16,204 bases of DNA. Origin: Sphingobium sp. (lineage in GTDB: Bacteria > Pseudomonadota > Alphaproteobacteria > Sphingomonadales > Sphingomonadaceae). Every line of letters starts with the position of its first letter. The stretch's first letter is position 1. The notes beneath the pieces were generated by a model that was given only the letters and a program-made list of their open reading frames with translations, searched no databases and was not told the DNA's origin. Positions 1 to 14,372 of this stretch are shown here, in pieces. The stretch is taken from contig JAGVJS010000404.1 in NCBI GenBank assembly GCA_020051025.1, positions 1 to 16,204 of the forward strand, in the 5' to 3' direction. Both the position numbers and the translations under genes were made by a program.

Positions 1-2385
1 ACCTATGACGGTCGCGCCCGCCTCCACCAGCGCCGCAATGCGCCGCAACGTCGCCAGCGTCATCACCCGGCTCGATCCGCCCAGATAGAGGGCGCGATAA
101 CGCGCCTTGCCGGCAACCAGTTCGCCCTTCTCCACGCTCATACGGTTGGCAAGGATATCGGCATTGACGAAATCATAGGCGTATCGCGTGGGCAGGTCCG
201 CCGGCACGCCATGCTCAAACAGCGACGTGATCGGCGCATCCTCGCCATAGAAATAGGCAAGATCGGCATGGTCGCGCCCCTGCTGAAGCAGATACCCGGT
301 GCGCGACATATAATCGACCCAGGGCTTCGCCATCTCCGCCCAGCTTTCATGCCGGTTGAAATATTGGCCGAAGATCATAAGGCTGAGGCCCGGCAGCTTG
401 TCATCAACCGGCTGATGCACCGACGTATGAACGATCGGCCGGTTGATGCCAGACACAAACTCCAGATCGATCACCCGCTTCAGGTCCGACGGCGCAAAAG
501 CCCAAGGTGCGAAGGCCGATGTCATACTTTCGGCCGACACGATATTCTGACCATAGATATGCGCGACGGAGGCTGCGCCCTTCATGTCGCCGATCAGGGT
601 CGGGCGTGGCGCTGCGCCACGGTTGAAGGTCCACATCGCCGCCATCGGCACATCGGCATGGGACCGCAACGCCAGATCGTCGCCCAGCACCGGACGGCCA
701 TTTTCCAGCGCCTCGCCATAGACGGTCAGGCCATGCTCATGCGCGACCTTCGCCACCGTGCCATAATGGGCATCGGCCAGCAGATCGGCCAGCGTCTGCC
801 GATAGTCATGCAGGAAGGCATCGCTGCGGGCGGGCGACCCCATTACCGCGCCGGTCAGCGTAGGCAGGAACGGGACGGGATCATAGCCGCGCCGCGCCTT
901 GAACTCCTCGACCATGCGCGGGGTCCAGTTGGATGCGCCCACCTCAATGCTGTCGGTCAGCAGTGCACGGATGCCCTTCTTGCCGATCCATTCCGCGCCT
1001 ACCGTGTCGCGATACATGCCAAGATAGGTTTCGAGATAGCGGCGCACGGCGGCGGCATCATATTTGTCGACTTCCAGGCCCGTGGCTTCGGGCGTGGCGG
1101 GATGGTTGGTCTTGCCGGTCAGCGAATAGCCCATACGAACTATCCGCCAGTCGCTCCCCTTGGGCGCGGTCCAGTCCAGCGTACCGTCGGGATGCATCTG
1201 ATCGGTGAGGTCGATCACCTTCGATGGATCGGTCGCAGGAACGGACGGCGCCGCCACGTCGCTCAGCAGGTTATAGTCAGGCACGATGCCGAAGCCGGCC
1301 TTGACCTCATATTGATCGACCCTGGCCTCCGCCGACAGGCGCAATTCGCCAATACCCAGCGTCGGGCTGTCGGGACGGGCGAAAACGTCCATCATGACCG
1401 CGCCGGGCGCACCGTCGCCCAATCCCGGCGACTTGAGTGCGTCGTTCGCTGAAAGGACCAGCCGGAAACGTCGTGCCGTGACAGGGGCGAAACCGATCGT
1501 GGCGGATACTTCGGTCAGGGTGAAGCGACCGACCGGCTGCCACCCCTGCGCCGTTTCTGCTTCCAGCGTCGGGCGATAGGCTGGATCGCCAAAGGGCGGA
1601 CGGGCATGGGGCACGAACAGGCTGGCCGACCGGATGGTGACGGGCTTGCCATAGTCGAGGATCACCGCGCCGGGATTGGCCGCATCGCCCTTGGCCACCT
1701 GCGCCACGGTTTCCAGATCATGGTCGAGCAATGGTGCGGCAGGCAGCGCGCGGCCATCGGCCTGGGTCACGCGCGGCTGCGCCAAGGGCGCCACGACGAT
1801 CGGATAAGCAAGGACGCGCGCATCGGCATAATAGCCGGGCAGCGCGCCACTTTCCGCGCCACCGGCCAGCGGGTCGCTGAACTTCGCACTTTGGAACGGG
1901 CCGGTAACGGAGGGCGGGGCAGGCAACGCGCCCTTCAACCTCTGGCCGCCGCGCAGGTCAGTTTCGCTCCAGACCAGCTTCTTCATCGCATCCTGCGGCT
2001 TGACCCATGGCCCGCCCGTCTCGCTCCAGCCGGGCGAAGCGGCGATGGCGAATTCCAGCCCCTTGGCGTCGGCTGTCTTCACGGCGTGGCGGAACGCATC
2101 CTTCCAGCCGTCGGTCATATAGATCAACCGATCCTTGACGATCTGCGGCGTCATCAGGCTGGCGTCGAAATTCTGGACGCCGCCAATGCCCATGCGCGCC
2201 ATCCAGTCGAGGTCCTTGTCGATCCCTTCCTTGGTCACATTGCCCTTCATCCAGTGCCACCAGACGCGTGGACGCGCCGACTGGGGTGGGTTCGCGAAGC
2301 CATCGGCCAGATCATCCGCCCATGCAGGGGCAGCGAGGACGGTGCAGGCCAACAGCGCGGCCAGACGAAGCGGGCGGAATGTCAT
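1..2385 (-). CDS. GH106 family alpha-L-rhamnosidase, exported, 3' end cut by the window edge
   Basis: Removes terminal alpha-L-rhamnose from glycosides, probably in the periplasm. The visible part is 795 codons, open to base 1; the family is usually about 1,000-1,150 residues, so the C-terminal third is missing here. Residues 1-23 form a signal peptide ending APAWA before DD. Residues 42-74 carry the GH106 signature (WWHWMKGNV, then EGIDKDLDWM, then GIGGVQNFD). Two acidic positions in conserved contexts are candidate catalytic residues: E481 in DSIEVG and E619 in SAESMTS; this assignment is from memory of the family, not alignment. The ATG at 2385 is preceded by AGAGGA nine bases upstream. 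It lies 19 bases after the small membrane protein gene and is the last visible gene of the run. GH106 enzymes act on rutinosides, naringin and rhamnogalacturonan side chains. The aromatic-catabolic neighbours favour a phenolic glycoside over pectin. Confidence 0.9.
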   Translation of the reverse strand, partial: MTFRPLRLAALLACTVLAAPAWADDLADGFANPPQSARPRVWWHWMKGNVTKEGIDKDLDWMARMGIGGVQNFDASLMTPQIVKDRLIYMTDGWKDAFRHAVKTADAKGLEFAIAASPGWSETGGPWVKPQDAMKKLVWSETDLRGGQRLKGALPAPPSVTGPFQSAKFSDPLAGGAESGALPGYYADARVLAYPIVVAPLAQPRVTQADGRALPAAPLLDHDLETVAQVAKGDAANPGAVILDYGKPVTIRSASLFVPHARPPFGDPAYRPTLEAETAQGWQPVGRFTLTEVSATIGFAPVTARRFRLVLSANDALKSPGLGDGAPGAVMMDVFARPDSPTLGIGELRLSAEARVDQYEVKAGFGIVPDYNLLSDVAAPSVPATDPSKVIDLTDQMHPDGTLDWTAPKGSDWRIVRMGYSLTGKTNHPATPEATGLEVDKYDAAAVRRYLETYLGMYRDTVGAEWIGKKGIRALLTDSIEVGASNWTPRMVEEFKARRGYDPVPFLPTLTGAVMGSPARSDAFLHDYRQTLADLLADAHYGTVAKVAHEHGLTVYGEALENGRPVLGDDLALRSHADVPMAAMWTFNRGAAPRPTLIGDMKGAASVAHIYGQNIVSAESMTSAFAPWAFAPSDLKRVIDLEFVSGINRPIVHTSVHQPVDDKLPGLSLMIFGQYFNRHESWAEMAKPWVDYMSRTGYLLQQGRDHADLAYFYGEDAPITSLFEHGVPADLPTRYAYDFVNADILANRMSVEKGELVAGKARYRALYLGGSSRVMTLATLRRIAALVEAGATVIG

Positions 2386-2404
2386 CGGGGGCAATCCTCT
2401 TTTA

Positions 2405-2842
2405 TCAAATAGCGCGCACGGACGACAGCAGCAGTCGCAGCGCCAGAGTAGCGACCAGCGCACCGAGCACGCCGCCATAGGCAATCTTGATCGTCACGGC
2501 CGCGCCCCAGCCGATAGCCGGAGGCCCGGCCACGCCGATCGAAAAGGCGAGCGCGCCACCCAGAAGGCCACCCGCCAGAGCGAACGAGGCAGCGCGGATC
2601 AGGATCGACCGCAGCGCCACGCCTCCGCCCAACCGCTTCCGCGCAATCAACGCCGGGACCAGTGCGCTCATCAGCGCGACGGCAATGCTTTGCGGCACGA
2701 AATCGAGCGCCAGATTGTCAGGCGCCATCCAGTCAAGTGGACGCCGAACGATCCCGAACACGCCAAGGAAGAAGGCAAAGCTCAGCGCCGCATTGATGCC
2801 GACGCTGATCACCGCCTCCTTCCTGATGGAAATAGCGCTCAC
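2405..2842 (-). CDS. Small four-helix integral membrane protein of unknown function
   Basis: I do not recognise the family. From the GTG at 2842 the product is 145 residues. Hydrophobic stretches at about 11-31, 49-67, 79-103 and 110-138 suggest four membrane helices, with Arg/Lys-rich turns such as IARKRLGGG between the second and third. The GTG overlaps the GH1 stop codon (GTGA), which suggests translational coupling. A second GTG at 2812 would give 135 residues, but its purine-rich AGGAAGGAGG sits only 2-3 bases away, which is tight. An upstream in-frame ATG at 2989 would run deep into the GH1 gene and adds a charged, non-membrane N-terminus, so I rejected it. The gene sits between two glycosidases, so a role in sugar or aglycone passage, or in envelope adaptation, is possible but not shown. 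Confidence 0.72.
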   Translation of the reverse strand: MSAISIRKEAVISVGINAALSFAFFLGVFGIVRRPLDWMAPDNLALDFVPQSIAVALMSALVPALIARKRLGGGVALRSILIRAASFALAGGLLGGALAFSIGVAGPPAIGWGAAVTIKIAYGGVLGALVATLALRLLLSSVRAI

Positions 2843-4143
2843 AGCGCGTTGCGACGGGCGATCGCGCCGTAAATGCCGGCGCTGGGCTTGGGTGTGCGGG
2901 CGAACGTCACCGGATCGACACTGTGCAGGCCGAATTTGGGCTTGTAGCCGAAAATCCATTCGAAATTGTCGAGCAGCGACCAGTGGCAATAGCCCTGCAC
3001 CGGCACACCGTCATCAATCGCAGCTTTCAGACCGGCCAACGCTTCGGGAATGAATTTGGCGCGGATCGCATCGTCCTCGGTCCCGACCCCATGTTCCGAT
3101 ACCAGGATCGGCACACCCGTCACCTCATGGGCGTAGCGGACCGCGCCACCGAGCGAAGGCGCCCAGACTTCGGTGCCCGACCAGTTGGCGATCGATCCCT
3201 TGGGCGCGGGCAGTCGGCCCTTGTCACCCCAGAGCGCGCGCTCGTAATTCTGCACGCCGATGAAATCGTCGCCCTTCGCGACATTCAGCCATTCTCCATA
3301 AAGCTCGCCGCGCATCCGGTCGCGCACCGACGCCTTGCCCACCGCCTGATCGTCCATCATGGCGAGCGAGATGCCGACCGGCAGGTCGGGACGCACCTCC
3401 TTGATCGCCGCCTTGCCCGCCTGATGCGCGGCCAACAGCCCCTTCTGGAGCTCCGGCAGGTCTTCGACGCCAGCGACATTGGCGCTGACGAACTTCGCAA
3501 CACCCAGCCGCTTCGCCGCCGTTTCCAGCGTCAGCTTCTGAATATCCCAGACCTGCGGGGGCAGCATCGGCTTCAGCAGCAACAGGATATTGGGTTCGTT
3601 GAAGGTAATGACGCTGTGAATATCCTTGCCCAGCGCACGCGTGACCTTGTCGCAATAGCGCGCAAAGAGCGACGCGCTTTCGGGGTTGGTCCACCCACCC
3701 TGCGCACTGAACCAGCGCGGCGAGGTGAAGTGGCTGTAAGTCGCTACAGGGGTCAGCCCCCGCGCGCGGCAGCCCTCGATCATCGCCTTGTAATGATCAA
3801 GCATCGCCTGGCTGAACAGGCCCTTTTCCGGCTCGATCCGCGCCCATTCGATGCCGAAGCGATAGCAGTTGAGACCCATCGCCTTCGCAAGGTCAAGGTC
3901 GGTTTCCCACAGCATGAAGCTGTTGCAGGCGTCACCCGACGGCTGGGTGAACACGGTGGGCTGCTGGTTCTCCAGAAACCAAAGATCGCTGGCGATATTA
4001 TTGCCCTCAATCTGGTGCGGCGCAGTCGCCGCGCCCCAGAGGAAGCCCTTGGGGAAGGCCGGGTCGGCGCTCTTGCGCGCAGCGAAAGCGGGGGCGGCCA
4101 TGGCGGCTGCGCCGGTAGCCAGAAGGGTTCTGCGATCCAGCAT
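2839..4143 (-). CDS. GH1 family beta-glucosidase with Tat-type signal
   Basis: Hydrolyses beta-glucosides by the retaining mechanism. The product is 434 residues, normal for GH1. The N-terminus reads DRRTLLATGAAAMAAPAFA (residues 3-21), a twin-arginine signal, so export folded to the periplasm is likely. The acid/base is E183 in TFNEPN. The nucleophile is E350 in VSEHG, where most of the family has TENG. GAATAPHQIEG (37-47) and WSLLDNFEW (388-396) followed by FGLHSVD supply the sugar-binding residues. The ATG at 4143 is preceded by GGAGA nine bases upstream and gives the Tat leader. A longer frame starting at 4308 would overlap the esterase gene and is not credible. It lies 28 bases after the esterase gene. 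With GH106 downstream it could remove the glucose left after rhamnose is taken from a rutinoside or neohesperidoside. Confidence 0.92.
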   Translation of the reverse strand: MLDRRTLLATGAAAMAAPAFAARKSADPAFPKGFLWGAATAPHQIEGNNIASDLWFLENQQPTVFTQPSGDACNSFMLWETDLDLAKAMGLNCYRFGIEWARIEPEKGLFSQAMLDHYKAMIEGCRARGLTPVATYSHFTSPRWFSAQGGWTNPESASLFARYCDKVTRALGKDIHSVITFNEPNILLLLKPMLPPQVWDIQKLTLETAAKRLGVAKFVSANVAGVEDLPELQKGLLAAHQAGKAAIKEVRPDLPVGISLAMMDDQAVGKASVRDRMRGELYGEWLNVAKGDDFIGVQNYERALWGDKGRLPAPKGSIANWSGTEVWAPSLGGAVRYAHEVTGVPILVSEHGVGTEDDAIRAKFIPEALAGLKAAIDDGVPVQGYCHWSLLDNFEWIFGYKPKFGLHSVDPVTFARTPKPSAGIYGAIARRNAL

Positions 4144-4171
4144 GATATCCGTCTCTCCGATTATGTGATTG

Positions 4172-5020
4172 TCAGACAGTGGTGTCGCGCACGAAGGCGC
4201 AGATCTCGTCGGCCAGCCGCCGGTCGGCGGTGCCCAGATGCATGGCCATGCTGTAATGATTATGGCCCGAATGAATATAACCGCGCGGCATCGCGCCATG
4301 GCGGGCAAGCCGGTCCTGCATCAGACCCAGAAATTCGGCCTGAAACCGGGGCGGATCAAACTCTGCGCAGGCAATGAGCAATGGCAATGGGGTGGAGGCC
4401 ACGGCCTCCAGCGGCATCCGATCCGAATAGAGCGAAGTTTCGCCATAATAAAGCGTGTCCCGCTGATCGAGCGGTGTGTAGCCATAAAGGCCCGACAGCA
4501 GGATCGCCCCGCGAATATGACTGCCGCCGGCCAGCTTCAGATAACCCGCCACATGCACCGAACCTGCCGATGTGCCCATCAGCACGATGCGATCAGGATC
4601 GCCGCCATGCTCTGCCGCATTGGCCTTGAGCCAATCGACCAGCACCGCCACATCTTCCGACCCGCCCGGCCAGACATGATCGGGCGCCAGCCGATAATTG
4701 ATGACCACGCCCAGAAAACCAGCCTGCGCCGCCATGCGCCCGACATTGGCGTTAGGCCAGGCATCCGCCCCGCCCTTGTCCCCTTTCAGGAAGCCCCCGC
4801 CATGAACGAAGACGAGGATCGGTGCATTTTTGGTATCAGCAGAAGCATAGAGATCCAGCCGATGCCGTTCATGCGGACCATAAGCGATGTCTGCTGCCGT
4901 CACCGGCACATGCATGGACAAAGCGCCCTGCTCCGCATCGAACAGCGCGCGGCAATGGGCCAGCATGTCCGGGCCAAGGTCGGTGCCCATGGCCGCAATC
5001 GCCTGTCTGATCTGGCTCAT
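4172..5020 (-). CDS. Alpha/beta-hydrolase fold esterase (HGGG / hormone-sensitive-lipase-like)
   Basis: A carboxylesterase-type hydrolase of 282 residues. HGGG at 73-76 forms the oxyanion hole, S151 in GTSAG is the nucleophile, D222 in AEFDPP is the likely acid, and H253 or H255 in GHNHYS is the catalytic histidine. The GHNHYS ending resembles the BD-FAE and kynurenine formamidase-like branch. There is no signal peptide, so it is probably cytoplasmic, unlike the two glycosidases downstream. The ATG at 5020 has GGAAGG six bases upstream; a longer start at 5152 would overlap the receptor gene. Substrate is inferred only: it could remove acyl groups (acetyl, feruloyl, caffeoyl) from the imported compound, or open a lactone or ester made during ring cleavage. 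It lies 70 bases after the receptor gene, across a strong inverted repeat. Confidence 0.88.
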   Translation of the reverse strand: MSQIRQAIAAMGTDLGPDMLAHCRALFDAEQGALSMHVPVTAADIAYGPHERHRLDLYASADTKNAPILVFVHGGGFLKGDKGGADAWPNANVGRMAAQAGFLGVVINYRLAPDHVWPGGSEDVAVLVDWLKANAAEHGGDPDRIVLMGTSAGSVHVAGYLKLAGGSHIRGAILLSGLYGYTPLDQRDTLYYGETSLYSDRMPLEAVASTPLPLLIACAEFDPPRFQAEFLGLMQDRLARHGAMPRGYIHSGHNHYSMAMHLGTADRRLADEICAFVRDTTV

Positions 5021-5049
5021 CCGTTCCCTTCCCGTTGCTGCGAAACATC

Positions 5050-5081
5050 GGCATGGCGAGGTCTTATCGCTCCGCCATGCC
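5050..5081 (-). other. Intercistronic hairpin between receptor and esterase genes
   Basis: On the transcribed strand GGCATGGCGGAG (5081-5070) pairs with CTCGCCATGCC (5060-5050) around a 9-base loop. This makes an 11-bp stem with a single bulged G. It begins nine bases after the receptor stop codon and ends 29 bases before the esterase start. No T-run follows, so it does not look like a standard intrinsic terminator. It may protect the receptor message from 3' decay or lower expression of the genes downstream. Confidence 0.55.
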
Positions 5082-5090
5082 TCTGTCTGA

Positions 5091-7373
5091 TCAGAACTTC
5101 GCGTCAAAGCTGATGCCGACCTGCCGGAAGGATTGTGTGCCGTAGATGGCACCGATATTCTGCTCTCCCTGATCGGTCGTGTAGGGGAAGTCGCTCTGCA
5201 TCAGCGAGGGTTCGTGCACATTGAACAGGTTGCGGCCAAATATCGCAACACTGTAGCGATTATCATCCGTGCGCAGGCCGATCCGACCACCCATCAGCCA
5301 ATGGGAACGGAAAGTTGTCAGGCTGTTGGAATTAGCCTCATAGCGCACCCGCGATTTCCAGACGGTATCGGCAGCCACGAAGCCGTTAAGGCGACCGGCC
5401 ACCGGCGCTTCATATTCGCCCGACAGCGTAAACTTATACTTGGGTGCATAAGCCAGCTGCGAGCCGCCGATATTGGTGCCATCCGTGCCGATGAAGCCAC
5501 CCGGATAGGTCGCTTTGGCATAGATGAAGCCAGTATTAAGCGACAGGCCTTCAAAGACTTTTCCGAAGAAATTGATTTCCGCTCCGCGCGATTTCACGCC
5601 GTTGATGTTAGTCTGAACACAGGAAATGACGGCGGTGCTGTCCACGGTGCACTGCTGCGCCTGGAAATTCTTGATCTTCTGGTAAAAGACGCTGAGATCA
5701 GCGACCCAGCCGCCGAACAAGGTGGTCTTGAGGCCCGCTTCATAAGCCATCGGGATTTCCGGCAACACGACAAAAGGCTTGGCCGGCGCCGACGGAATGG
5801 CAATCTGCCCGCCCTTGAACCCGCGCGATGCGGTGGCGTAGATCATCATGTCGCGGTCCAGATCATATTGCGCACCAAGCCGCCAGGAGAATTTCTGAAC
5901 GTCCAATATCGTGCGGCTGAACGGATCGGCGGGCGTGAAATAGTCATAACGATCCATCGACAGTCGATCAGTCGTGTACCGGCCACCAGCAATCAGGCGC
6001 AGGCGAGGCGACAGATGGAAGGTTCCCTGTCCGAAGACGGCAAGCGATTCATCCTGAATGTCGAGATCAGCGCCTGGGTTGCGCACGATCGGAATAGTCA
6101 GGCCGGGGAATGGCACCACCGACACCGACAGGCTTTCCGGATCGCGTGTCTGCTTCTGGTTCGAATAGAAGACGCCGGCGGTATATTCCAGGAACTGGTC
6201 GGCGGGCGAACTGACCCGCAATTCCTGCGTGAAAAGGCTAAGCTTACGGTTCACAGCGCCGTTACCGACCTGCAACTCCAGCGGATCGCCACGGAACACG
6301 TTGGTTGCCGCAGCCAATCCAGTTTCGCTCGACTTACGATAGGCAGTGACGGACGTCAGCGTGAACGGATCGGCTTCATAGTCGAGCTGAAGCGAGCCGC
6401 CATAATTTTCCGTGCGGCCGACATAGGAAGAGTCGGAGCAATATTTCTGATTGCCCTCGCCGGGTGTGACGCCGCAGCTTGCGAGCCGTGCAGTGATGCC
6501 GGTGCTGTCTTGAAGCAGCCCGCCCAACGCCGTACCGGGACCGCTGGTCTGAACGAAGGTGAAGAAGTCGCCACCATTTTCGGCACGGCTCTTGGTATAG
6601 TCGCCGATCAGGTTGACGGTCAGCCGTTCGGTCGGTTCCCAGAGCAGGCGCCCACGCATGCCGTAACGATCGTTGTCGTTATAGTCACCGGTCAGCGCAT
6701 TCTTGTTCACGCCTTGGCGCAAATTGGTGACGCCCGACACACGGATGGCGGCATTGGACGCCAGCGGGATATTCACGACGCCCTGGATGACCTGATTGCC
6801 GAACTTCGACCCGGCGGTGCCGGCATTGGACAATTCGGTGCGCACCCGCGCGGAAAAGCCACTGGGGTCGGGTGCGTTGGTGGTAATGTTGATGACGCCT
6901 GCCGAGGTGGTCAGGCCGAACAACGTGCCCTGCGGCCCCTTCAGCACTTCGATCCGGCTGACGTCGAACAGATCGGAGATATTGGCGTTGCCTTGGCTCA
7001 CCTGATCGACGACGACGCCGACCGATGCGACTGCGCCGGCGGAGAAGGTCTGGGTGCCGATGCCGCGGATCGCACCGCCGCCGCCGGTATTCTGGCCGGG
7101 TGCCTGCTGGATTTCCAGCGAAGGCGCGACGCGGCTGAGGTCATTTACCGTGTTGACCTGCTGACGCTCCAGTTGCGCCTGATTGGCGACAGTGATGGAG
7201 ATCGGAACCTCCGTCACTTTTTCAGCCTTCCGCTGGGCAGTCACGATGATGTCGGAATTGACTTCGGGCACGTCTGCCGCTGCCTGCGGCGCGGCCTCCT
7301 GCGCAAAGGCGGGCGCAGCGAGTGCGATGACGCTCGCGCTCGCCAGTGCAGCGATCGAAATGAAGTTACGCAT
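5091..7373 (-). CDS. TonB-dependent outer-membrane receptor
   Basis: Outer-membrane active transporter of 760 residues, usual for a sphingomonad receptor without an N-terminal STN signalling domain. Residues 1-24 form a signal peptide ending APAFA before QE. DIIVTA at 41-46 is the TonB box. The plug covers about 50-170, with the conserved RIEVLKGPQGTLFG (140-153) and GVINITT (159-165). The remainder is the beta-barrel, ending in the expected C-terminal phenylalanine (SFDAKF). Paired cysteines in two barrel stretches (ASCGVTP...KYC and QCTVD...SC) could form loop disulfides. The ATG at 7373 follows a GGGAGAGGG tract. It lies between the ring-cleavage genes and the glycosidases, so its cargo is probably the intact phenolic glycoside or aglycone rather than iron. 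That is inference from position; no residue in the sequence fixes the ligand. Confidence 0.95.
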   Translation of the reverse strand: MRNFISIAALASASVIALAAPAFAQEAAPQAAADVPEVNSDIIVTAQRKAEKVTEVPISITVANQAQLERQQVNTVNDLSRVAPSLEIQQAPGQNTGGGGAIRGIGTQTFSAGAVASVGVVVDQVSQGNANISDLFDVSRIEVLKGPQGTLFGLTTSAGVINITTNAPDPSGFSARVRTELSNAGTAGSKFGNQVIQGVVNIPLASNAAIRVSGVTNLRQGVNKNALTGDYNDNDRYGMRGRLLWEPTERLTVNLIGDYTKSRAENGGDFFTFVQTSGPGTALGGLLQDSTGITARLASCGVTPGEGNQKYCSDSSYVGRTENYGGSLQLDYEADPFTLTSVTAYRKSSETGLAAATNVFRGDPLELQVGNGAVNRKLSLFTQELRVSSPADQFLEYTAGVFYSNQKQTRDPESLSVSVVPFPGLTIPIVRNPGADLDIQDESLAVFGQGTFHLSPRLRLIAGGRYTTDRLSMDRYDYFTPADPFSRTILDVQKFSWRLGAQYDLDRDMMIYATASRGFKGGQIAIPSAPAKPFVVLPEIPMAYEAGLKTTLFGGWVADLSVFYQKIKNFQAQQCTVDSTAVISCVQTNINGVKSRGAEINFFGKVFEGLSLNTGFIYAKATYPGGFIGTDGTNIGGSQLAYAPKYKFTLSGEYEAPVAGRLNGFVAADTVWKSRVRYEANSNSLTTFRSHWLMGGRIGLRTDDNRYSVAIFGRNLFNVHEPSLMQSDFPYTTDQGEQNIGAIYGTQSFRQVGISFDAKF

Positions 7374-7413
7374 GATGTCCCTCTCCCTTTCTTATGATTG
7401 GGTGATTGTTGAA
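7374..7413 (-). promoter_or_regulatory. Receptor leader resembling the GH1 leader
   Basis: The 40 bases before the receptor ATG read, on the coding strand, ACAATCACCCAATC, then AAAGGGAGAGGGACATC. The 28-base leader of the GH1 gene (4171-4144) has ACAATCACATAATC, then GGAGAGACGGATATC. The shared blocks ACAATCACNNAATC and GGAGAG..GGA.ATC keep the same order, with about seven bases fewer in the GH1 leader. It contains the ribosome-binding site. A common regulatory element or shared ancestry is possible, but chance similarity of purine-rich leaders is not excluded. Confidence 0.35.
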
Positions 7414-8244
7414 TTATTGTTCGTCGATGATGCGGTTGGTAAGCGTGCCGACAGTGCCGATGCTGATTTCGACCTGGTCGCCCGCCTTCATGTAGAGCGG
7501 CGGGGTGCGCTTATCGCCGACGCCGCCGGGCGTACCGGTGGCGATGACGTCGCCGGGGCTGAGCGGGGTGAAGGCCGACACATATGCGATCACGGTCGGT
7601 ATATCCCAGATCATGTCGCTGACCGGCTGATCCTGTAACAATTCGCCGTTGAGACGGGTCTGCACACGCAGCGCGCCCAGATCGTCAATCTCGTCCGGCG
7701 TCACCAGCGCGGGACCGAAGCCGCCGGTGCCGGGAAACGTCTTGCCCGGCGTGAACTGGATATTATGGCGCTGCCAGTCGCGCGCGCTGCCGTCGTTAAA
7801 GGCGGCGTAGCCGGCAACATAGTTCCACGCATCGGCCGCCGCGACCTTGTGCGCGGGCTTGCCGATCACGATCGCCAGTTCGCCTTCATAATCGAAGCGC
7901 TCGGTCACGGCCGGCTTCACCATCGGCTGGCCATCGGCAACCAGACTGTCGGCATAGCGCACGAAGATCGCCGGATGCGCCTTCTGCTCACGCCCGGTTT
8001 CCTTGACATGTTCGGCATAGTTGAGGCCGACGCAAAGGATCTTGGCAGGATCGGGGATCACCGGCAGCAACACGATATCGGCGGCGGCGAAAATCGTGCC
8101 ATCGGCCAGCGCGTTCAGGCTCCCCTCGGCCAGCGCCGCCTTCAGGCTGGGCGTCGTATCGGTCGCCAGTTCGACGATCGTTTCGCCATCCAGATGGCCA
8201 AAGCTGGGCGTGCCGTCGGGACGGCGGAAGCTGACATAACGCAT
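7414..8244 (-). CDS. Fumarylacetoacetate hydrolase (FAH) family hydrolase/isomerase
   Basis: Acts on acyl-pyruvate or oxo-dienoate compounds, cleaving a C-C bond or isomerising or decarboxylating them. The length of 276 residues is normal for the FAH C-terminal fold. ILCVGLNYAEH (69-79) carries the likely catalytic H79. E120 and E122 in DYEGELA, and D151 in FNDGSARD, are the expected metal ligands. GDVIATGTPGGVG (231-243) is the conserved substrate loop. The ATG at 8244 overlaps the dioxygenase stop by one base (TAATG), so translation is probably coupled. Its place right after a ring-cleavage dioxygenase suggests it processes the meta-cleavage product. No MhpC-type hydrolase is visible, so this enzyme may carry out the C-C hydrolysis step. 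Relatives include HpcE-type isomerase/decarboxylases and acylpyruvases; the sequence alone does not choose between them. Confidence 0.92.
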   Translation of the reverse strand: MRYVSFRRPDGTPSFGHLDGETIVELATDTTPSLKAALAEGSLNALADGTIFAAADIVLLPVIPDPAKILCVGLNYAEHVKETGREQKAHPAIFVRYADSLVADGQPMVKPAVTERFDYEGELAIVIGKPAHKVAAADAWNYVAGYAAFNDGSARDWQRHNIQFTPGKTFPGTGGFGPALVTPDEIDDLGALRVQTRLNGELLQDQPVSDMIWDIPTVIAYVSAFTPLSPGDVIATGTPGGVGDKRTPPLYMKAGDQVEISIGTVGTLTNRIIDEQ

Positions 8245-9152
8245 TAGTGATTTTCCTCTGTCAGGACATTGAGGGGCTGGGCTTCCCAGTCGCGGCGATG
8301 GCGGAACTTCTCTTCGGCGGCGCGCAGGCCACCGAAATCCTTGTCGGACATGCCCCACTGGTCGATGCGGTTTTCCGGCCAGCTCCAGTCCTCGGGCGCG
8401 CCAGCCTGATAATCGTCGGGCACCTTGTTCACCGCCGTCGAAAATTCGATCACGGGACCAAAGGGCGCGATGAAATAGGCGAAGACATTGGCGCCCGGAC
8501 CATGGCGTCCCGGCCCCCAGGCTGGCGCCATATCCTGGTCGCGCAGACGGCCGATGCCGCGCATCACGGCGTCCATATCCTCCATTTCAAAGGCGATATG
8601 GTTGAGACTGACAAAGCCAGCGCGGGCGAAGGCGGTGCTATGGTGCGAGTCATTGCAGCGCACGAACACCATGCCCTTGGTCCGGTCCGACACGCGGAAG
8701 CCCAGCACGTCTTCGACCAGATGGCCGGTCGCTTCGGCGTCAGCACTGTTGAAGACAACATGGGTCAGTTTCACCGGTAGGTCGGCGCCCTCGATCGGCG
8801 CGACTTCGGCCGCATCGGTCAGGAAGCGGAGCAGTTCGCCCTCGGCCAGTTCGACAATGATGCCATGGCCGCCGCCCAGATCGTTGGACTTGACGGGCGC
8901 GGCAGGCAAGCCGGCCTCTGTCACGCTAAGCTTCAATTGCTCCAGCCGGTCGGCGGTACAGACAAAGGTGGTCGAGCGGACATAAGGCTCACCGGATTCT
9001 TCCAGCGCGACCAGATAGGGAAAGCTGCCCGACCCACGCAGATAATGGATATTGCCGACGACCTGCGCCGGGGCCATGCCCCAGATATCGGCCAGGAAGG
9101 CGGCGGCTTCTGCCGCGCCGGGCAGCGCCAGTTCGATGCTGCGCAACTTCAT
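8244..9152 (-). CDS. Type I (VOC) extradiol ring-cleavage dioxygenase
   Basis: Cleaves a catechol-type ring next to its hydroxyls using Fe(II) and O2. The product is 302 residues with the two-domain VOC layout of BphC-like enzymes. The three metal ligands are present in the second domain: H131 in KLTHVVF, H185 in LNHIAFE and E237 in GPVIEFS. The paired histidines in DSHHSTAF (168-175) and Y249 in DDYQAG match the usual acid-base residues, so the enzyme should be active. The ATG at 9152 overlaps the preceding stop as ATGA; a longer start at 9215 would overlap the DUF336 gene. It follows the FAD hydroxylase and the GlcG/HbpS gene, and precedes the FAH gene. Likely substrate is the catechol-like ring made by the hydroxylase, for example an 8-hydroxylated flavonoid A ring; the exact ring is not determined. 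Confidence 0.93.
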   Translation of the reverse strand: MKLRSIELALPGAAEAAAFLADIWGMAPAQVVGNIHYLRGSGSFPYLVALEESGEPYVRSTTFVCTADRLEQLKLSVTEAGLPAAPVKSNDLGGGHGIIVELAEGELLRFLTDAAEVAPIEGADLPVKLTHVVFNSADAEATGHLVEDVLGFRVSDRTKGMVFVRCNDSHHSTAFARAGFVSLNHIAFEMEDMDAVMRGIGRLRDQDMAPAWGPGRHGPGANVFAYFIAPFGPVIEFSTAVNKVPDDYQAGAPEDWSWPENRIDQWGMSDKDFGGLRAAEEKFRHRRDWEAQPLNVLTEENH

Positions 9153-9580
9153 TTCATATCTCCATGGACCAGGCCGGCGGTCAGGATGCCGGCAAGGGCG
9201 CAGGCTTCGTCGCACTCGCCAGTGTCGCCGCTGATCCCGACGGCGCCGATCACCGCACCTTCCACATCACGGATCAGGACGCCGCCGGGGGACAGAGCGA
9301 GCCGTCCGCCAGTGGCAGCGACGACGCTCTGAAAGAAGGCAGGGTTGGAAGCGGCGCGCGCGGCGAGAACCCGCGTATCCGCCCCCATCCCCAGCGCACC
9401 CGAAGCCTTCGCCTTCGCGATGTCGAAACGAAACAGGCTGGTGCCATCCTCACGCACCATGGCAACCAGATGCGCGCCGGCATCCAGAACCAGCACGGCC
9501 AGCGGCTGCGCATCGTCGGCTCGCGCCTTGGCAAGGGCGGCGTCGATGATGGTCCGCGCCTGATTCAGCGTGAGGCTCAT
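9149..9580 (-). CDS. GlcG/HbpS (DUF336) family protein
   Basis: A small protein of 143 residues, typical for the family. It shows the PLAVLVLDAGAHLVAMVREDG block (about 26-46), a TRVLAARAASNPAFF stretch that follows the usual substrate-pocket helix, and GGVLIRDVEGAVIGAVGISG (about 99-118), the hallmark C-terminal motif. No signal peptide, so it is cytoplasmic, unlike the exported haem-binding HbpS. The ATG at 9580 overlaps the hydroxylase stop (ATGA), and its own stop overlaps the dioxygenase start (ATGA), so it is locked between the two ring enzymes. Members of this family often lie in aromatic-catabolic operons, but their biochemical role there is not settled. Possible roles are binding of an aromatic intermediate or cofactor, isomerisation, or maintenance of the dioxygenase iron. 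Confidence 0.9.
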   Translation of the reverse strand: MSLTLNQARTIIDAALAKARADDAQPLAVLVLDAGAHLVAMVREDGTSLFRFDIAKAKASGALGMGADTRVLAARAASNPAFFQSVVAATGGRLALSPGGVLIRDVEGAVIGAVGISGDTGECDEACALAGILTAGLVHGDMK

Positions 9581-11076
9581 GCGGCAATCTCCTGATGGGC
9601 GGCGCCGGCGATCAGCGCGTCGCGCCGGGCGATCAGGTCACTGCCCTTGCCGGTGCCGAAGACATAATGGTCGGGCCGGATCAGAACGGCCTCGGCCTTG
9701 CGATCGGCCAGCCAGGTGGCGATCGCGCCGCTATCGGCGAACTGATCGAGGTTAATGATGGTCACATCACCGCCTTCAATCGAAGTCCGGGTAAAAAGGC
9801 GCCAGCCGCCACCGGTCACTTCATCAAGCAGCCTGTCGCCGACACGCGGCTGGATGAAGCGTTCGCCTGCCCCCGCCGTGCCGGTGGCGATGATGCCGGT
9901 AGCGATGGCCGGGATCAGATCGGCGGCCGTGCCCTGCGGCGCGCTCCCGGCAGCTTCGCGCATCTTCGCGTCGCGTTCGGCAGCAGCTTGCGGATCGAGC
10001 ATGCAGATATAGCGGCCCGCGCCTACGGCTGCGGAGATGACCGCGCGGACATGAGGATCGCGCTCGGACTGGTAGCTGTTGAGCAGCGCATCGGGCGCCT
10101 GCCCCTTCAGCACCAGATCCAGCTTCCAAGCGAGATTGGCGGCGTCGCGCAGGCCATGGCACATGCCCTGTCCAAAAAAGGGCGGCGTCTGGTGCGCGGC
10201 ATCGCCGGCCAGAAAGACGCCGCCCTGCCGCCACCGCTCGGCGATCAGTCCATGGAAACGATAGGTGGCCGCGCGCACCACCTTGTGCGGCACCCCGGAG
10301 AGATAGGGTTCGACAAGGACTGCGACCGCATCCGGCGCCATCATCGCCTGGTCGTCTTCGCCCGGCAGCAACATGAATTCCCAGCGGCGATGATTGCCGC
10401 GCCCCGGCACGATCGTCGCCGGGCGCTTGGGATCGCACATCATCACCGACAGCTTTTGCAGGTCAGCGGCCTCCGGCACGCCCCACAGATCGGGGAAGCG
10501 GACAGGCCCATCGACCTCGGCATCGACCACCAGCCAGGGTTCCTCGAAATCGAGATCGTCCAGCTTGATATGCAGCACCTTGCGCACCACGCTGCGGGCG
10601 CCGTCGCAGGCAATGACGTAGCGCGCCCGTTCGCTGCAACCGCCGGACAGGCGGAGCGTAACGCCGTCCGCACCCTGTTCCAGCCCTTCAAATGCGACAC
10701 CGAGTTGGACAGTTATATTGGGGTAATCTTTCAGCGCGTCGCGGAGGTGATCCTCCAGCTCGGGCTGGTAGAAGAAATAGTCGTTGGACCAGCTGAACGG
10801 CCGTGCGCGACCGACCGTGCCCATGTAGCGGATGACGCCATGATCGGCACCGACATGCAGATGCCCTTCGGTATCGCGCATGTCCGGGGCGACCCGGTCG
10901 ATGATGCCCGCAGACTGGAACAGGCGCATCATCTCATGGTCCAGATGCACCGCGCGGGGCAGCGGATAGGGGTGCGCCTCCTGCTCGATCACCAGGACCG
11001 AGGCACCGGATTTGCCAAGTAAATTGGCCGCAAAGGCCCCCACCGGCCCGCAGCCGATGATCGCAACATCGAACAT
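9577..11076 (-). CDS. FAD-dependent aromatic-ring monooxygenase, MhpA-like
   Basis: Group A flavoprotein hydroxylase that uses NAD(P)H and O2 to add a hydroxyl to a phenolic ring. The length is 499 residues; MhpA-type enzymes are about 500-600. GCGPVG (8-13) is the Rossmann nucleotide-binding loop, CDGARS (157-162) the DG motif that contacts both FAD and NAD(P)H, and FLAGDAAHQTPPFFGQGM (288-305) the FAD-binding GD motif. The last 100 residues match the thioredoxin-like C-terminal domain, ending ...VLIRPDHYVFG. The ATG at 11076 gives the conserved N-terminus; its ribosome site (GGAAAG, 8 bases upstream) is modest. It starts 16 bases after the amidohydrolase gene. It probably makes the catechol cleaved by the dioxygenase. 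At family level it compares to FdeE (naringenin 8-hydroxylase) and MhpA, but which substrate it takes cannot be read from the sequence. Confidence 0.93.
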   Translation of the reverse strand: MFDVAIIGCGPVGAFAANLLGKSGASVLVIEQEAHPYPLPRAVHLDHEMMRLFQSAGIIDRVAPDMRDTEGHLHVGADHGVIRYMGTVGRARPFSWSNDYFFYQPELEDHLRDALKDYPNITVQLGVAFEGLEQGADGVTLRLSGGCSERARYVIACDGARSVVRKVLHIKLDDLDFEEPWLVVDAEVDGPVRFPDLWGVPEAADLQKLSVMMCDPKRPATIVPGRGNHRRWEFMLLPGEDDQAMMAPDAVAVLVEPYLSGVPHKVVRAATYRFHGLIAERWRQGGVFLAGDAAHQTPPFFGQGMCHGLRDAANLAWKLDLVLKGQAPDALLNSYQSERDPHVRAVISAAVGAGRYICMLDPQAAAERDAKMREAAGSAPQGTAADLIPAIATGIIATGTAGAGERFIQPRVGDRLLDEVTGGGWRLFTRTSIEGGDVTIINLDQFADSGAIATWLADRKAEAVLIRPDHYVFGTGKGSDLIARRDALIAGAAHQEIAA

Positions 11077-11092
11077 GAAAGCGTCTTTCCGG

Positions 11093-12319
11093 TCAGGCGG
11101 TCACGGGCTGGACGACGGGCGCTTTATGCAGCTTTCCACCCAGCATTATCATATTGATTTTATTGGCATCCTGCATGATTCGGACGTCCGTTGTGGGATC
11201 GCCGTCGATCAGCAGCAGGTCGGCCAGATAACCGGCTTTCACCTGTCCAACTTGTTGTCCCATGAGTTGCCCGCCCAGCATGGTGGCGGCGCTCAGCGCC
11301 TCGGCCGGCGTGAAGCCATAATAGGTCACGAAATGTTCCAGATCGCGGGCATTGCGGCCATGGGGGTTGAAGGGGAAGCCATAGTCGCCACCCGGCAGGA
11401 TGCGCACGCCCCGCGCCTTGAGCTTGGGCACCAGCGCCTTTTCCAGTTCCAGCCGCTCGGCACCGCTGGCCTTCATCGAGGACATGTCGATATGCGGCGG
11501 GGGCGATGCCTCCAGCGCGGCAACGGAGACGCCGGGGCCGGGTGCGTAGAAAATCTCGTCCTTCTTCGCGGCCATCGCGTCGATCGCGGCATCATCGGCG
11601 AAAGAGCAATGATAGAGGATGCGCGCGCCCGCTTCGAGCGCCAGAGTGATGGCGCGCGGCGAATAGGCGTGGGTGGCGATCCAGAGGCCCGCTTCCTTCG
11701 CCGCTTCGCCGGCCGCCTGCATTTCCGCGTCGGTGTAGAGGATGTCCGCCGAAGAACCGGGCTTGAGCGCATCTTCGCCGGAAATAACCAGCTTCAGCGA
11801 CTTCACCCCCTCCGCCGCGCAATAAGCGACAAAGGCGCGCATCGCTTCAGGACCGCGACCGTTGAACACGTCGCCGGTTTCGACGCCTTCTTCCCCTTCC
11901 GGGCTGCGCTCCAGCGTCGAGGGGACGAGGCGTGGGCCGGGCGTTTCGCCGGCTTCGATCGCACGGGCCAGCTCGGGTTCGATCTGGTCGCCCAGCGCGC
12001 CGGCCGAATAGAGGCTGGTATAGCCATGATCGAGCAGCACGCGGGCATTGCGCCAGGTAGCGACCTTCAGTTCTTCGGGCGGCAGGATGAACTGGTGATA
12101 GATTTTCTCGACCGAGCTGCCCCAAGTCAGATGGGTATGCGCATCGACCATGCCGGGCATCAACGTGCCATCCCGACCGTCGATCACGCTGTCGGCGGTT
12201 GCATCGGTGTCGGCAGGCAAGATGGCGGCGATGCGATCGCCTTCGATCAGGACGGCGCCGGGGACGGGATCGCTGCCCGTTCCGTCGAATATCCGAACAT
12301 TACGGATAAGCTGTCGCAC
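11093..12319 (-). CDS. Metal-dependent amidohydrolase (imidazolonepropionase-like)
   Basis: Hydrolase of the amidohydrolase superfamily, 408 residues. Metal-binding residues are visible: H61 and H63 in DAHTHLTW, K176 in SLKLVISG (probable carboxylated lysine), H217 in WIATHAYS, H237 in YHCSFAD, and D312 in PGGDYGF. The C-terminus returns to the small beta-domain with YLADLLLIDGDP (364-375). No signal peptide. Start is GTG at 12319, preceded by AGGAG nine bases upstream. It is the first gene of the aromatic block. Members of this subgroup act on C-N, ester, lactone and organophosphate bonds. In this setting, opening a lactone or pyranone ring, or hydrolysing a ring-cleavage intermediate, is the best guess, but an unrelated amide substrate remains open. 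Confidence 0.88.
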   Translation of the reverse strand: MRQLIRNVRIFDGTGSDPVPGAVLIEGDRIAAILPADTDATADSVIDGRDGTLMPGMVDAHTHLTWGSSVEKIYHQFILPPEELKVATWRNARVLLDHGYTSLYSAGALGDQIEPELARAIEAGETPGPRLVPSTLERSPEGEEGVETGDVFNGRGPEAMRAFVAYCAAEGVKSLKLVISGEDALKPGSSADILYTDAEMQAAGEAAKEAGLWIATHAYSPRAITLALEAGARILYHCSFADDAAIDAMAAKKDEIFYAPGPGVSVAALEASPPPHIDMSSMKASGAERLELEKALVPKLKARGVRILPGGDYGFPFNPHGRNARDLEHFVTYYGFTPAEALSAATMLGGQLMGQQVGQVKAGYLADLLLIDGDPTTDVRIMQDANKINMIMLGGKLHKAPVVQPVTA

Positions 12320-12398
12320 CTGAAGTCTCTCCTGCCGTCGTTGTGAAGACGTTATGGGCTGGTGGAGATGGAAAGAAAAATAATGTTTTTTCGATATG
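12320..12398 (-). promoter_or_regulatory. Candidate promoter/operator of the catabolic gene run
   Basis: The 79 bases between the LysR gene and the amidohydrolase GTG are the only gap with marked AT richness. On the plus strand, 12375-12392 is an inverted repeat: GAAAAA, six bases, TTTTTC. It lies 55 bases upstream of the GTG, a plausible operator position for a LysR-type regulator. A weak -10-like CATAAC on the coding strand (12339-12334) has no convincing -35 partner. There is no GC-rich stem plus T-run, so it does not look like a terminator of the LysR gene. Confidence 0.4.
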
Positions 12399-13298
12399 TC
12401 ATAGCTTGGAACTATGGATCAGCGTGTCATATAATTCCTCCCCCAGTCGCGACAGGCGGCCACCCGCCAATCTACGCACACCAATGCTGCGGGCGAATTG
12501 CGCTTCCTCAATGATAATGGCGCGCAATACGCCGATCGACAATTCGGCCGAAGCGACGTGCATCGGCAAGATGGTGACGCGCTGGCTGCCGCGCACCATC
12601 GCCTTGGTCGTCAGCAGAGAATCGCAGCGTATGATATCCTGCGGCACCGGAATGTCTGCGGCCATGAAAAGCGCATCAACCTGACGGCGAAAGGCGCCCC
12701 GCGCCTCCGGCAGTACCCAGCGCATATGCGCCGTATCGCGCAGGGACAGCCGCGCGGGCATATGGTCATTCTGCTTGCCCACGATCAGGGCGAAAGGATC
12801 GCGTGAGAAGGTGTGTTCGTCTATTCCTTCGGGCGGCTGCTCGATGCCGGTCGTCACGAAGGCGAGTTCAATCTCGCCACGATGGAGCATGGCGGCCAGA
12901 TCATGGTCGGGCCGCTCCACCACGTGCAGGGCGAACCGGCCGATCCGCGCCTCCATACGGCGCACCGCATCGGGCAGCAGGCTGACGAGAGCACCCGGCG
13001 TGCCACCGATACGCAGCGGCCCGGTAACGCCGGCGCTGGCCAGTGTCACTTCGGCCTGCACATCGGCCATCAGGCTGTCGATCGCCTCCGCTCGGCGCAG
13101 CAGCGCTTCGCCTTCGGGCGTTAGCTGGATGCCGCTGCGTGATCGTTCGAACAACGACACGCCGCCCAGAGACTGTTCCAGTTGCGCGATCGCGTTGGAC
13201 ACGGAAGGCTGGGAAATATTGAGCGCCCGCGCCCCGCCGCTGATGCTGTTGGCGCGGCACACCGCCAGGAAGGTACGGATAGCGCGCGGGTCGATCAT
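12399..13298 (-). CDS. LysR-type transcriptional regulator
   Basis: DNA-binding regulator of 299 residues, normal family length. The winged helix-turn-helix covers about residues 3-62, with the conserved FLAVCRANSISGGARALNIS and SQPSVSNAIAQLE stretches and LFERSRSGIQLTPEG. The C-terminal effector-binding domain follows from about 92 (GPLRIGGTPGAL) to the end. The ATG at 13298 overlaps the stop of the dehydratase gene by one base (TGATG), so the two are probably co-transcribed. It points the same way as the catabolic genes rather than away from them, which differs from the common divergent LysR arrangement. It probably senses the aromatic substrate or a cleavage product and controls the gap at 12320-12398; this rests on position only. 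Confidence 0.93.
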   Translation of the reverse strand: MIDPRAIRTFLAVCRANSISGGARALNISQPSVSNAIAQLEQSLGGVSLFERSRSGIQLTPEGEALLRRAEAIDSLMADVQAEVTLASAGVTGPLRIGGTPGALVSLLPDAVRRMEARIGRFALHVVERPDHDLAAMLHRGEIELAFVTTGIEQPPEGIDEHTFSRDPFALIVGKQNDHMPARLSLRDTAHMRWVLPEARGAFRRQVDALFMAADIPVPQDIIRCDSLLTTKAMVRGSQRVTILPMHVASAELSIGVLRAIIIEEAQFARSIGVRRLAGGRLSRLGEELYDTLIHSSKL

Positions 13299-14287
13299 CA
13301 GTCAGCGCCTCCGATAATCGCGGCATAGGCGGCGGGATCGACATTGCTGCCCGACATTACCACCACGCTGGCACCGTCGCAGGATGGGACAAGTCCGTTC
13401 AGTATTGCCGCCAGAGCCACCGCCCCGCCCGGCTCCACCACCAGCTTGAGCGTGGAGAAGGCGAAGCGCATCGCGTCGCGCACCTGATCGTCGCTAACCA
13501 CCAGCCCGCCGGACAGCAATGCCTGATTGATCGGGAAGGTCATGGCGCCGGGACTGGGCGCCATCAACGCGTCGCAGATGCTGCGTGCATCGGGCGACAC
13601 CGTTTCGCGCCCACCACTGGCCAGCGAACGGGCGGTATCGTCAAATCCCGCCGGTTCGACCGCGTACAGATCGACGCCCGGCGCGCTCGCCTTGACCGCT
13701 GCGGCAATCCCGGCGGTCAGGCCACCACCGCCACAACAGACGAGGATCTGGCCGATATCGGCCCCCGCCTCGACCGCCTGATCCAGGATTTCAAGGCCGG
13801 CCGTGCCCTGCCCTGCGATGATGAAGGGATCGTCAAAGGACGGCACCAGCGTCGCGCCCCGTTCCTGCGACAGGGCTGTGGCGATGTCCTCGCGGCTTTC
13901 CCTATGGCGGTCATAGGTCACGATCTCCGCCCCCAGCGCGCGGGTATTGGCGAGTTTGATCGCGGGGGCATCGGCCGGCATCACGATGGTCGCCGGCATG
14001 CCAAGCAGCTTCGCGGCGGCGGCCACGCCCTGCGCATGATTGCCCGATGACCAGGCGACGACACCCGCCGCCCGCTCTCGATCATCCAGCCGCGCCAGCC
14101 GGTTATAGGCGCCGCGAAACTTGAACGATCCCGTTCGCTGCGCCCCTTCGAACTTCAAGAGTACGCGGCGGCCGACACGATCGTTCAGCGCATCATTCTC
14201 CAGCAAGGGGGTGCGCACAGCAGCAGGCGCGATGATACGGGCGGCATCGACAATATCGGCGATGGTGATGACGGGCGATTGGTCCAT
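13298..14287 (-). CDS. PLP-dependent threonine/serine dehydratase-like enzyme
   Basis: Fold-type II PLP enzyme of 329 residues that eliminates ammonia and water from hydroxy-amino acids. K56 in GSFKFRGA is the Schiff-base lysine. SSGNHAQG (80-87) is the substrate loop, CGGGGL (185-190) the phosphate-binding glycine loop, and MSGSN (311-315) supplies the residue that contacts the PLP ring nitrogen. It lacks the C-terminal ACT domain of biosynthetic IlvA, so it is the short catabolic type. Alternatives are serine racemase or 3-hydroxyaspartate dehydratase. The ATG at 14287 has a strong AAGGAG six bases upstream. It lies just before and overlaps the LysR gene. It has no obvious chemical role in the aromatic pathway, so it may be a bystander or handle an amino-acid-like fragment. 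Confidence 0.9.
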   Translation of the reverse strand: MDQSPVITIADIVDAARIIAPAAVRTPLLENDALNDRVGRRVLLKFEGAQRTGSFKFRGAYNRLARLDDRERAAGVVAWSSGNHAQGVAAAAKLLGMPATIVMPADAPAIKLANTRALGAEIVTYDRHRESREDIATALSQERGATLVPSFDDPFIIAGQGTAGLEILDQAVEAGADIGQILVCCGGGGLTAGIAAAVKASAPGVDLYAVEPAGFDDTARSLASGGRETVSPDARSICDALMAPSPGAMTFPINQALLSGGLVVSDDQVRDAMRFAFSTLKLVVEPGGAVALAAILNGLVPSCDGASVVVMSGSNVDPAAYAAIIGGAD

Positions 14288-14372
14288 GCGCGGCTCCTTA
14301 TTGCGCCCACGGCTCTAGCCGCCCTGCGACGAGAGGAGAAGCGCCAACCTGTCGCACCCGGCTTGCCTGCCG
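14288..14372 (-). promoter_or_regulatory. Gap between the kdp regulators and the catabolic locus
   Basis: 85 bases without a gene. They contain the AAGGAG ribosome site of the dehydratase and a short inverted repeat at 14310-14321 (CGGCT, two bases, AGCCG) 22 bases before its start. Directly after the kdpE stop is a four-base-arm repeat, CGGC..GCCG, without a T-run. No convincing terminator or -35/-10 pair is visible. A promoter for the dehydratase-LysR pair is expected here from the change in function. Confidence 0.3.

What the first reader, a model, noticed from the sequence alone, without database searches (positions are those of the whole stretch)
1..12319. Possible complete uptake-to-ring-cleavage locus for rhamnosylated phenolic glycosides
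Ten genes on one strand combine an exported GH106 rhamnosidase, an exported GH1 glucosidase, a TonB receptor, an esterase, an FAD ring hydroxylase, an extradiol dioxygenase and an FAH hydrolase. Rhamnose-glucose disaccharides on flavonoids need exactly the two glycosidases. The ring enzymes and LysR regulator resemble the Herbaspirillum fde (naringenin) set at family level, and a GH106 enzyme acting on flavonoid glycosides is known from Novosphingobium PP1Y (RHA-P). Linking sugar removal directly to aglycone cleavage in one operon-like unit is uncommon and worth testing.
Basis: partly seen in the sequence, partly recalled or inferred. Interest (0 to 1): 0.72.

Follow-up and report, generated by a model that had tools for sequence, protein, structure and literature searches.

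The report
Sphingobium plant-phenol glycoside degradation locus
This is a conserved set of soil-bacterium genes that most likely imports a sugar-coated plant phenol (probably a flavonoid), strips off rhamnose and glucose, and breaks open a phenolic ring, although no substrate has been tested.

Summary
Window 1-12319 carries ten minus-strand genes: GH106, a small membrane protein, Tat-type GH1, esterase, TonB receptor, FAH hydrolase, VOC extradiol dioxygenase, HbpS-like protein, FAD hydroxylase and amidohydrolase, with LysR upstream. GH106 is cut by the contig end. The locus is not a one-off: the dioxygenase orthologue is in 14 of 24 sampled same-genus genomes (15 loci), and 14 of those loci keep the same order from LysR to GH106 (the fifteenth is contig-limited). 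In Novosphingobium PP1Y the crystallised rhamnosidase (PDB 6q2f, RHA-P) is encoded beside the homologous cluster. The ring enzymes are not Mhp and do not look like Fde: hydroxylase 31% to MhpA, 25-27% to an Fde-like proxy; dioxygenase unrelated to MhpB. New evidence for a flavonoid: homologous hydroxylase-dioxygenase-FAH sets share a locus with a quercetinase-like gene in three other lineages, although no quercetinase was detected in Sphingobium and many homologous sets lack one. Best reading: uptake, deglycosylation and meta-cleavage of a rhamnosylated phenolic glycoside, probably flavonoid. Aglycone, order of steps and induction are untested. A new variant of a known kind, not a new kind.

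The parts
1..2385 (-). GH106 alpha-L-rhamnosidase, Sec-like signal, 3' end cut by the contig end
   Evidence: PF17132 907.7 bits; nearest solved structure 6q2f, E 3e-293; start at 2385
2405..2842 (-). small membrane-type protein of unknown function, 145 aa, GTG start
   Evidence: no Pfam hit; related frames at a similar place in many but not all relatives
2839..4143 (-). GH1 beta-glucosidase-like enzyme with twin-arginine signal
   Evidence: PF00232 192 bits; TFNEP and SEHG motifs
4172..5020 (-). alpha/beta-hydrolase (BD-FAE/Abhydrolase_3), no signal seen; kept in glycosidase-free versions of the locus
   Evidence: nearest solved structure 4zrs 'Esterase', E 2e-62
5091..7373 (-). TonB-dependent receptor (type A of two types that occupy this slot)
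   Evidence: PF00593, PF07715; types
7414..8244 (-). fumarylacetoacetate-hydrolase family enzyme, inferred to hydrolyse the ring-cleavage product
   Evidence: PF01557 227 bits
8244..9152 (-). type I (VOC) extradiol dioxygenase
   Evidence: PF00903; H132/H186/E237 invariant in 7 aligned sequences
9149..9580 (-). HbpS/GlcG-like protein, role unknown
   Evidence: PF03928 108.8 bits
9577..11076 (-). group A FAD aromatic hydroxylase, MhpA-named subfamily
   Evidence: PF01494 207 bits; NF004829 474 against cut-off 390; 31% to E. coli MhpA
11093..12319 (-). amidohydrolase (PF01979; prolidase/imidazolonepropionase-like)
12399..13298 (-). LysR-type regulator, same strand, directly upstream
   Evidence: PF00126, PF03466; beside the amidohydrolase gene in 14 of 15 same-genus loci
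12399..12415 (-). candidate regulator site: inverted repeat ATAG-N7-CTAT overlapping the LysR stop, followed by a conserved AT-rich block
   Evidence: ATAG-N7-CTATGA once in each of 16 of 24 loci examined, at the end of LysR

Best explanation
A catabolic locus for rhamnosyl-glucosides of plant phenolics, most likely flavonoids. The TonB receptor brings the glycoside across the outer membrane (inferred). GH106 removes terminal alpha-L-rhamnose and GH1 removes beta-D-glucose in the periplasm (family activity; site inferred from signals). The aglycone, or a fragment that still holds the phloroglucinol-type A-ring, enters the cytoplasm (inferred). The FAD hydroxylase adds a hydroxyl next to a phenolic OH, the VOC enzyme cleaves the ring extradiol, and the FAH enzyme hydrolyses the resulting beta-dicarbonyl (family chemistry, inferred). 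The esterase and amidohydrolase are inferred to act on ester, lactone or acid intermediates. B-ring acids are inferred to go to the protocatechuate 4,5-cleavage pathway. LysR is the likely inducer-responsive regulator (inferred).
For: Same gene order in 14 of 15 same-genus loci, the fifteenth cut by contig ends. PP1Y: three pieces of 6q2f match the GH106 gene next to the homologous cluster letter for letter, with rhamnose-catabolic genes on one side and PobA/LigB on the other. GH106 is also next to PobA in G327 and near PobA/LigAB in N. pentaromativorans. A quercetinase-like gene is in the same locus as a homologous hydroxylase-dioxygenase-FAH set in Croceibacterium, Rhizobium rhizoryzae (48% to the first) and Alloyangia (34% in two pieces, annotated only as a cupin protein); two of those three hydroxylases fall in the 12-row clade (SH-aLRT 99, quick tree) that holds the window's. 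The window GH1 is 48% identical to the GH1 in a Klebsiella variicola plasmid set of rhamnosidase, quercetinase, GH1 and carboxylesterase. PMC10653915 (passage) reports flavonoid-glycoside activity for the PP1Y GH106.
Against: No substrate, induction or enzyme data. Quercetinase was found in none of 25 same-genus genomes searched, the window's 61%-complete one included, so the C-ring step is unknown here. Nine unselected hydroxylase loci from a phylum sample, and those of Massilia, R. brockwellii and Falsirhodobacter, had no quercetinase, GH1, GH106 or Klebsiella-type rhamnosidase match (R. brockwellii has a GH3). Of the nine plasmid records with a quercetinase match, three have the ring set; five others opened do not and one (H89) was not opened; without the record that gave the query it is two of eight. 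The hydroxylase passes a cut-off named for 3-hydroxyphenylpropionate hydroxylase. No match to the PP1Y rhamnose isomerase at E <= 1e-30 in 22 of 25 same-genus genomes; other rhamnose routes were not searched.
Confidence: 0.55

Rival explanations
1. The substrate is a phenylpropanoid or phenylethanoid rhamnosyl-glucoside (verbascoside type): esterase frees a cinnamic acid, GH106 and GH1 remove sugars, and the MhpA-like hydroxylase and VOC enzyme degrade the small phenol.
For: Hydroxylase in the MhpA-named subfamily; a secreted esterase in 13 of 14 flanked same-genus loci; homologous ring sets without quercetinase are common.
Against: Hydroxylase only 31% to MhpA and the dioxygenase unrelated to MhpB; quercetinase linkage in three lineages; the secreted esterase is absent from the window.
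Confidence: 0.22
2. GH106 serves pectin or saponin breakdown, and the ring enzymes serve steroid or biphenyl-type substrates.
For: A Sphingobium GH106 showed putative rhamnosidase activity on steroidal saponins (PMC10653915, passage); other GH106 copies exist in the genus.
Against: HsaC and BphC models far below cut-off (33 of 450 and 48 of 366 bits); no pectin genes among the locus genes; nearest solved GH106 is 6q2f.
Confidence: 0.08
3. The FAH gene is a non-phosphorylative L-rhamnose pathway hydrolase, so the locus mixes rhamnose use with an unrelated ring pathway.
For: NCBIfam hit to 2,4-didehydro-3-deoxy-L-rhamnonate hydrolase (154 bits) and match to PDB 8gsr.
Against: Far below that model's cut-off of 500; FAH stays with the hydroxylase and dioxygenase where no GH1, GH106 or rhamnose gene was matched in view (L051, L137, L154, L052, L135).
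Confidence: 0.05
4. Chance neighbours: two independent functions sharing one region.
For: Three Novosphingobium loci keep the ring set without glycosidases; nine unselected distant loci have no GH1 or GH106 either.
Against: Order kept in 14 of 15 same-genus loci and in Novosphingobium; the glycosidase-free clade nests inside glycosidase-bearing ones, so it reads as a loss.
Confidence: 0.04

Closest known systems
RHA-P locus of Novosphingobium sp. PP1Y (plasmid Mpl, PDB 6q2f)
   Same: GH106 58% identical; LysR, amidohydrolase, hydroxylase, HbpS, dioxygenase, FAH, receptor, esterase and GH1 homologues beside it
   Different: GH106 upstream of LysR; rhamnose genes and PobA/LigB attached; other receptor type; extra MBL-fold gene
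fde naringenin operon of Herbaspirillum seropedicae SmR1
   Same: FAD hydroxylase plus VOC-type ring-cleavage enzyme (PMC11069340, PMC8552027, passages)
   Different: Rieske partner FdeD not found here; subfamilies differ by proxy comparison; no glycosidases named for fde in the passages seen
ifc isoflavone cluster of Variovorax
   Same: FAD hydroxylase, glyoxalase-type dioxygenase, alpha/beta-hydrolase (PMC11069340, passages)
   Different: ifc enzymes are described as fde-related and with cupins; no cupin gene in this window
Rhamnosidase-quercetinase-GH1-carboxylesterase set, Klebsiella variicola plasmid
   Same: rhamnosidase plus GH1 (48% to the window's) plus esterase
   Different: rhamnosidase of the Bac_rhamnosid (GH78-type, label recalled) families, quercetinase present, no match to the ring enzymes in the 20-kb stretch
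mhp pathway of E. coli
   Same: MhpA-like hydroxylase family
   Different: 31% identity; MhpB gives no match to the window dioxygenase

Membership tests
GH106 alpha-L-rhamnosidase | family profile over curated cut-off | tested here: met
   907.7 bits against 29
GH106 alpha-L-rhamnosidase | catalytic glutamates of RHA-P conserved | tested here: met
   E483/E621 align with E506/E644 of 6q2f (numbering recalled; PMC6828813 passage says acid and base of BT_0986 are conserved in RHA-P)
GH106 alpha-L-rhamnosidase | activity on rhamnosides | not testable with these tools
   no assay
fde operon | Rieske partner gene (FdeD) beside the hydroxylase | tested here: not met
   no Rieske family among the locus genes
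fde operon | FdeE/FdeC orthology | tested here: inconclusive
   real FdeE/FdeC sequences not obtained; against the fde-like Massilia pair 25-27% and 33% over half length
mhp pathway | type III dioxygenase MhpB | tested here: not met
   window dioxygenase is VOC type and has no match to MhpB
type I extradiol dioxygenase | 2-His-1-Glu metal triad | tested here: met
   H132, H186, E237 invariant in 7 sequences
steroid HsaC / biphenyl BphC | equivalog score | tested here: not met
   33 of 450 and 48 of 366 bits
flavonol (quercetinase) cluster | quercetin 2,3-dioxygenase gene | tested here: not met
   no cupin among the window genes; no match in the own MAG (61% complete) or 24 same-genus genomes

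The most novel reading that the evidence does not exclude
The core (amidohydrolase, hydroxylase, HbpS, dioxygenase, FAH, esterase) is an undescribed meta-cleavage route for the phloroglucinol-type A-ring of flavonoids, separate from fde. It is fed by quercetinase in some lineages and by another C-ring opening step in sphingomonads. Sphingomonads have built it into a one-locus glycoside utilisation unit whose outer-membrane receptor is repeatedly exchanged.
Probability: 0.3. Interest if true: 0.7.

Novelty: new variant of a known kind. Interest (0 to 1): 0.5.

Why it matters
It would give a physiological setting to a crystallised rhamnosidase (RHA-P), name a second candidate pathway for the flavonoid A-ring besides fde/ifc, and offer a marker for flavonoid-glycoside use by plant-associated sphingomonads. 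It is directly testable in culturable strains.

Tried and rejected
fde membership: no Rieske gene, different subfamilies by proxy. The genome-contig scan was meant to reach Herbaspirillum, but the 80 loci kept of 396 hold none, so FdeE/FdeC themselves were not compared; the Massilia pair is called fde-like from architecture only. mhp: MhpB unrelated. Steroid/biphenyl: scores too low. Rhamnose-pathway FAH: below cut-off and kept without glycosidases. The promoter/terminator scan gave nothing usable at the LysR-amidohydrolase junction. GH3 beside the ring set in Rhizobium brockwellii was not pursued. Papers: 9 of 10 searches used (lists capped, empty); none of the listed titles or abstract openings describes this locus. 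PMC11069340, PMC8552027, PMC11303751, PMC10653915, PMC4059872, PMC12710314, PMC6073497 and PMC6828813 were seen as passages, PMC12911418 as abstract and passages. Marin 2013/2016, De Lise 2016 and Mensitieri 2018 were not seen. No structure was predicted.
Full report
Observation. The window lies in a draft genome of 2.44 Mb, 433 contigs, 61% complete; the named dioxygenase relatives at 93% are Sphingobium. GH106 runs off the contig; a GH106 C-terminal piece at the end of contig C62 fits as the missing end but was not joined.

Conservation. The dioxygenase has an orthologue at 84-94% in 14 of 24 same-genus genomes sampled, 15 loci in all. In 14 of the 15 loci LysR, amidohydrolase, hydroxylase, HbpS, dioxygenase, FAH, receptor, esterase, GH1 and GH106 stand in that order; the fifteenth is on a 7-kb contig. 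GH106 is found in all 14 of these genomes and in 2 of the 10 without the cluster. In an even sample of the family, 7 of 397 genomes including the own one passed E 1e-80; of the six new loci four carry GH1 and GH106 and two are cut by contig ends. Among the nine plasmid records with a dioxygenase place of 60% or more, six have GH106 within 10 kb (one across the record's start) and three do not.

Known anchor. Three pieces of PDB 6q2f, as printed, are found letter for letter in the PP1Y plasmid gene directly upstream of the homologous cluster (two other Novosphingobium loci hold only the shortest piece), so the crystallised enzyme is encoded at this locus. That 6q2f is RHA-P is recalled; PMC10653915 (passage) reports flavonoid-glycoside activity of the PP1Y GH106. 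Rhamnose-catabolic genes flank it on one side and PobA and LigB lie on the other. N. pentaromativorans has rhamnose genes, GH106, PobA and LigA/LigB together, without the core in the 26 kb seen.

Modules. N. aromaticivorans, Novosphingobium ES2-1 and THN1 keep amidohydrolase, hydroxylase, HbpS, dioxygenase, FAH and esterase with no receptor or glycosidase inside the set (in THN1 the amidohydrolase matches in two frames). On the tree of five concatenated core proteins (28 rows, rooted on Croceibacterium) they form one clade (100) beside a glycosidase-bearing locus, which reads as a loss. The receptor slot holds one of two distant types (27-32% identity between types); on the core tree the type needs 7 changes over 25 rows, and 290 of 1000 shuffles do as well (mean 8.05), so the types are no more clustered than shuffled labels. 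L034 and L035, nearly identical, were both counted; rows without the receptor were not.

Which ring. The hydroxylase is 68% identical to the Croceibacterium and N. aromaticivorans enzymes, 58% to Alloyangia, 31% to MhpA and 22-27% to two fde-like hydroxylases. A bicupin quercetinase (matches PDB 1y3t, 2h0v, 8hfb) shares the locus with the homologous set in Croceibacterium; a 48% relative does so in Rhizobium rhizoryzae and a 34% relative in Alloyangia. Of nine plasmid records with a quercetinase match these are three; without the record the query came from, two of eight. Five of the other six were opened and show no match to the hydroxylase, dioxygenase or FAH; H89 was not opened. Conversely, nine unselected hydroxylase loci and those of Massilia, R. 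brockwellii and Falsirhodobacter have no quercetinase, GH1 or GH106 match: the ring set as such is not tied to flavonols. In the hydroxylase tree the three quercetinase-linked rows sit on separate branches, two inside the window's 12-row clade (quick method, no mixture model, MhpA outgroup a long branch of odd composition). In such loci quercetinase and an esterase would yield a trihydroxybenzoate from the A-ring (recalled chemistry), which the hydroxylase, dioxygenase and FAH could then degrade. Sphingobium has no detected quercetinase (0 of 25 same-genus genomes, own included), so either the hydroxylase acts on the intact aglycone or another enzyme opens the C-ring. This gap is the main weakness.

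Regulation. ATAG-N7-CTATGA occurs once in 16 of 24 loci examined. In the same-genus loci it overlaps the end and stop of LysR, so coding may explain part of its conservation; in G327 it begins at the LysR stop and lies mostly beyond it. The missing eight are L034 (LysR not on the contig), L046, L047, L149, L151, L152, L153 and L049.

Verdict. A conserved sphingomonad glycoside-plus-ring-cleavage locus; flavonoid substrate likely but untested.

Noticed in passing
window 5091-7373 and receptor slot of relatives: The TonB receptor at the same slot belongs to one of two distant types that switch between close relatives (L033 against the window, 30%) while the enzymes stay 82-95% alike.
   Followed up: partly
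window 2839-2842; L037: A roughly 302-aa secreted esterase found between GH1 and GH106 in 13 of 14 flanked same-genus loci is absent here and in L037.
   Followed up: partly
L140 (Croceicoccus marinus) 8535-15243: GH106 beside a different hydroxylase-dioxygenase-hydrolase trio of fde-like type: a second pairing of rhamnosidase and ring-cleavage genes.
   Followed up: no
L181 (Klebsiella variicola plasmid) 5369-14795: Bac_rhamnosid-type rhamnosidase, quercetinase, GH1 and carboxylesterase together, a rutin-type set.
   Followed up: no
window 13298-16204: A threo-3-hydroxyaspartate ammonia-lyase-like gene and KdpE/KdpD-like genes upstream; the neighbours beyond LysR vary between relatives, which marks the locus boundary.
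   Followed up: no
genome G013 (L034, L039): One genome carries two copies of the locus with different receptor subtypes; its contamination estimate is 9%, so one copy may be foreign.
   Followed up: no
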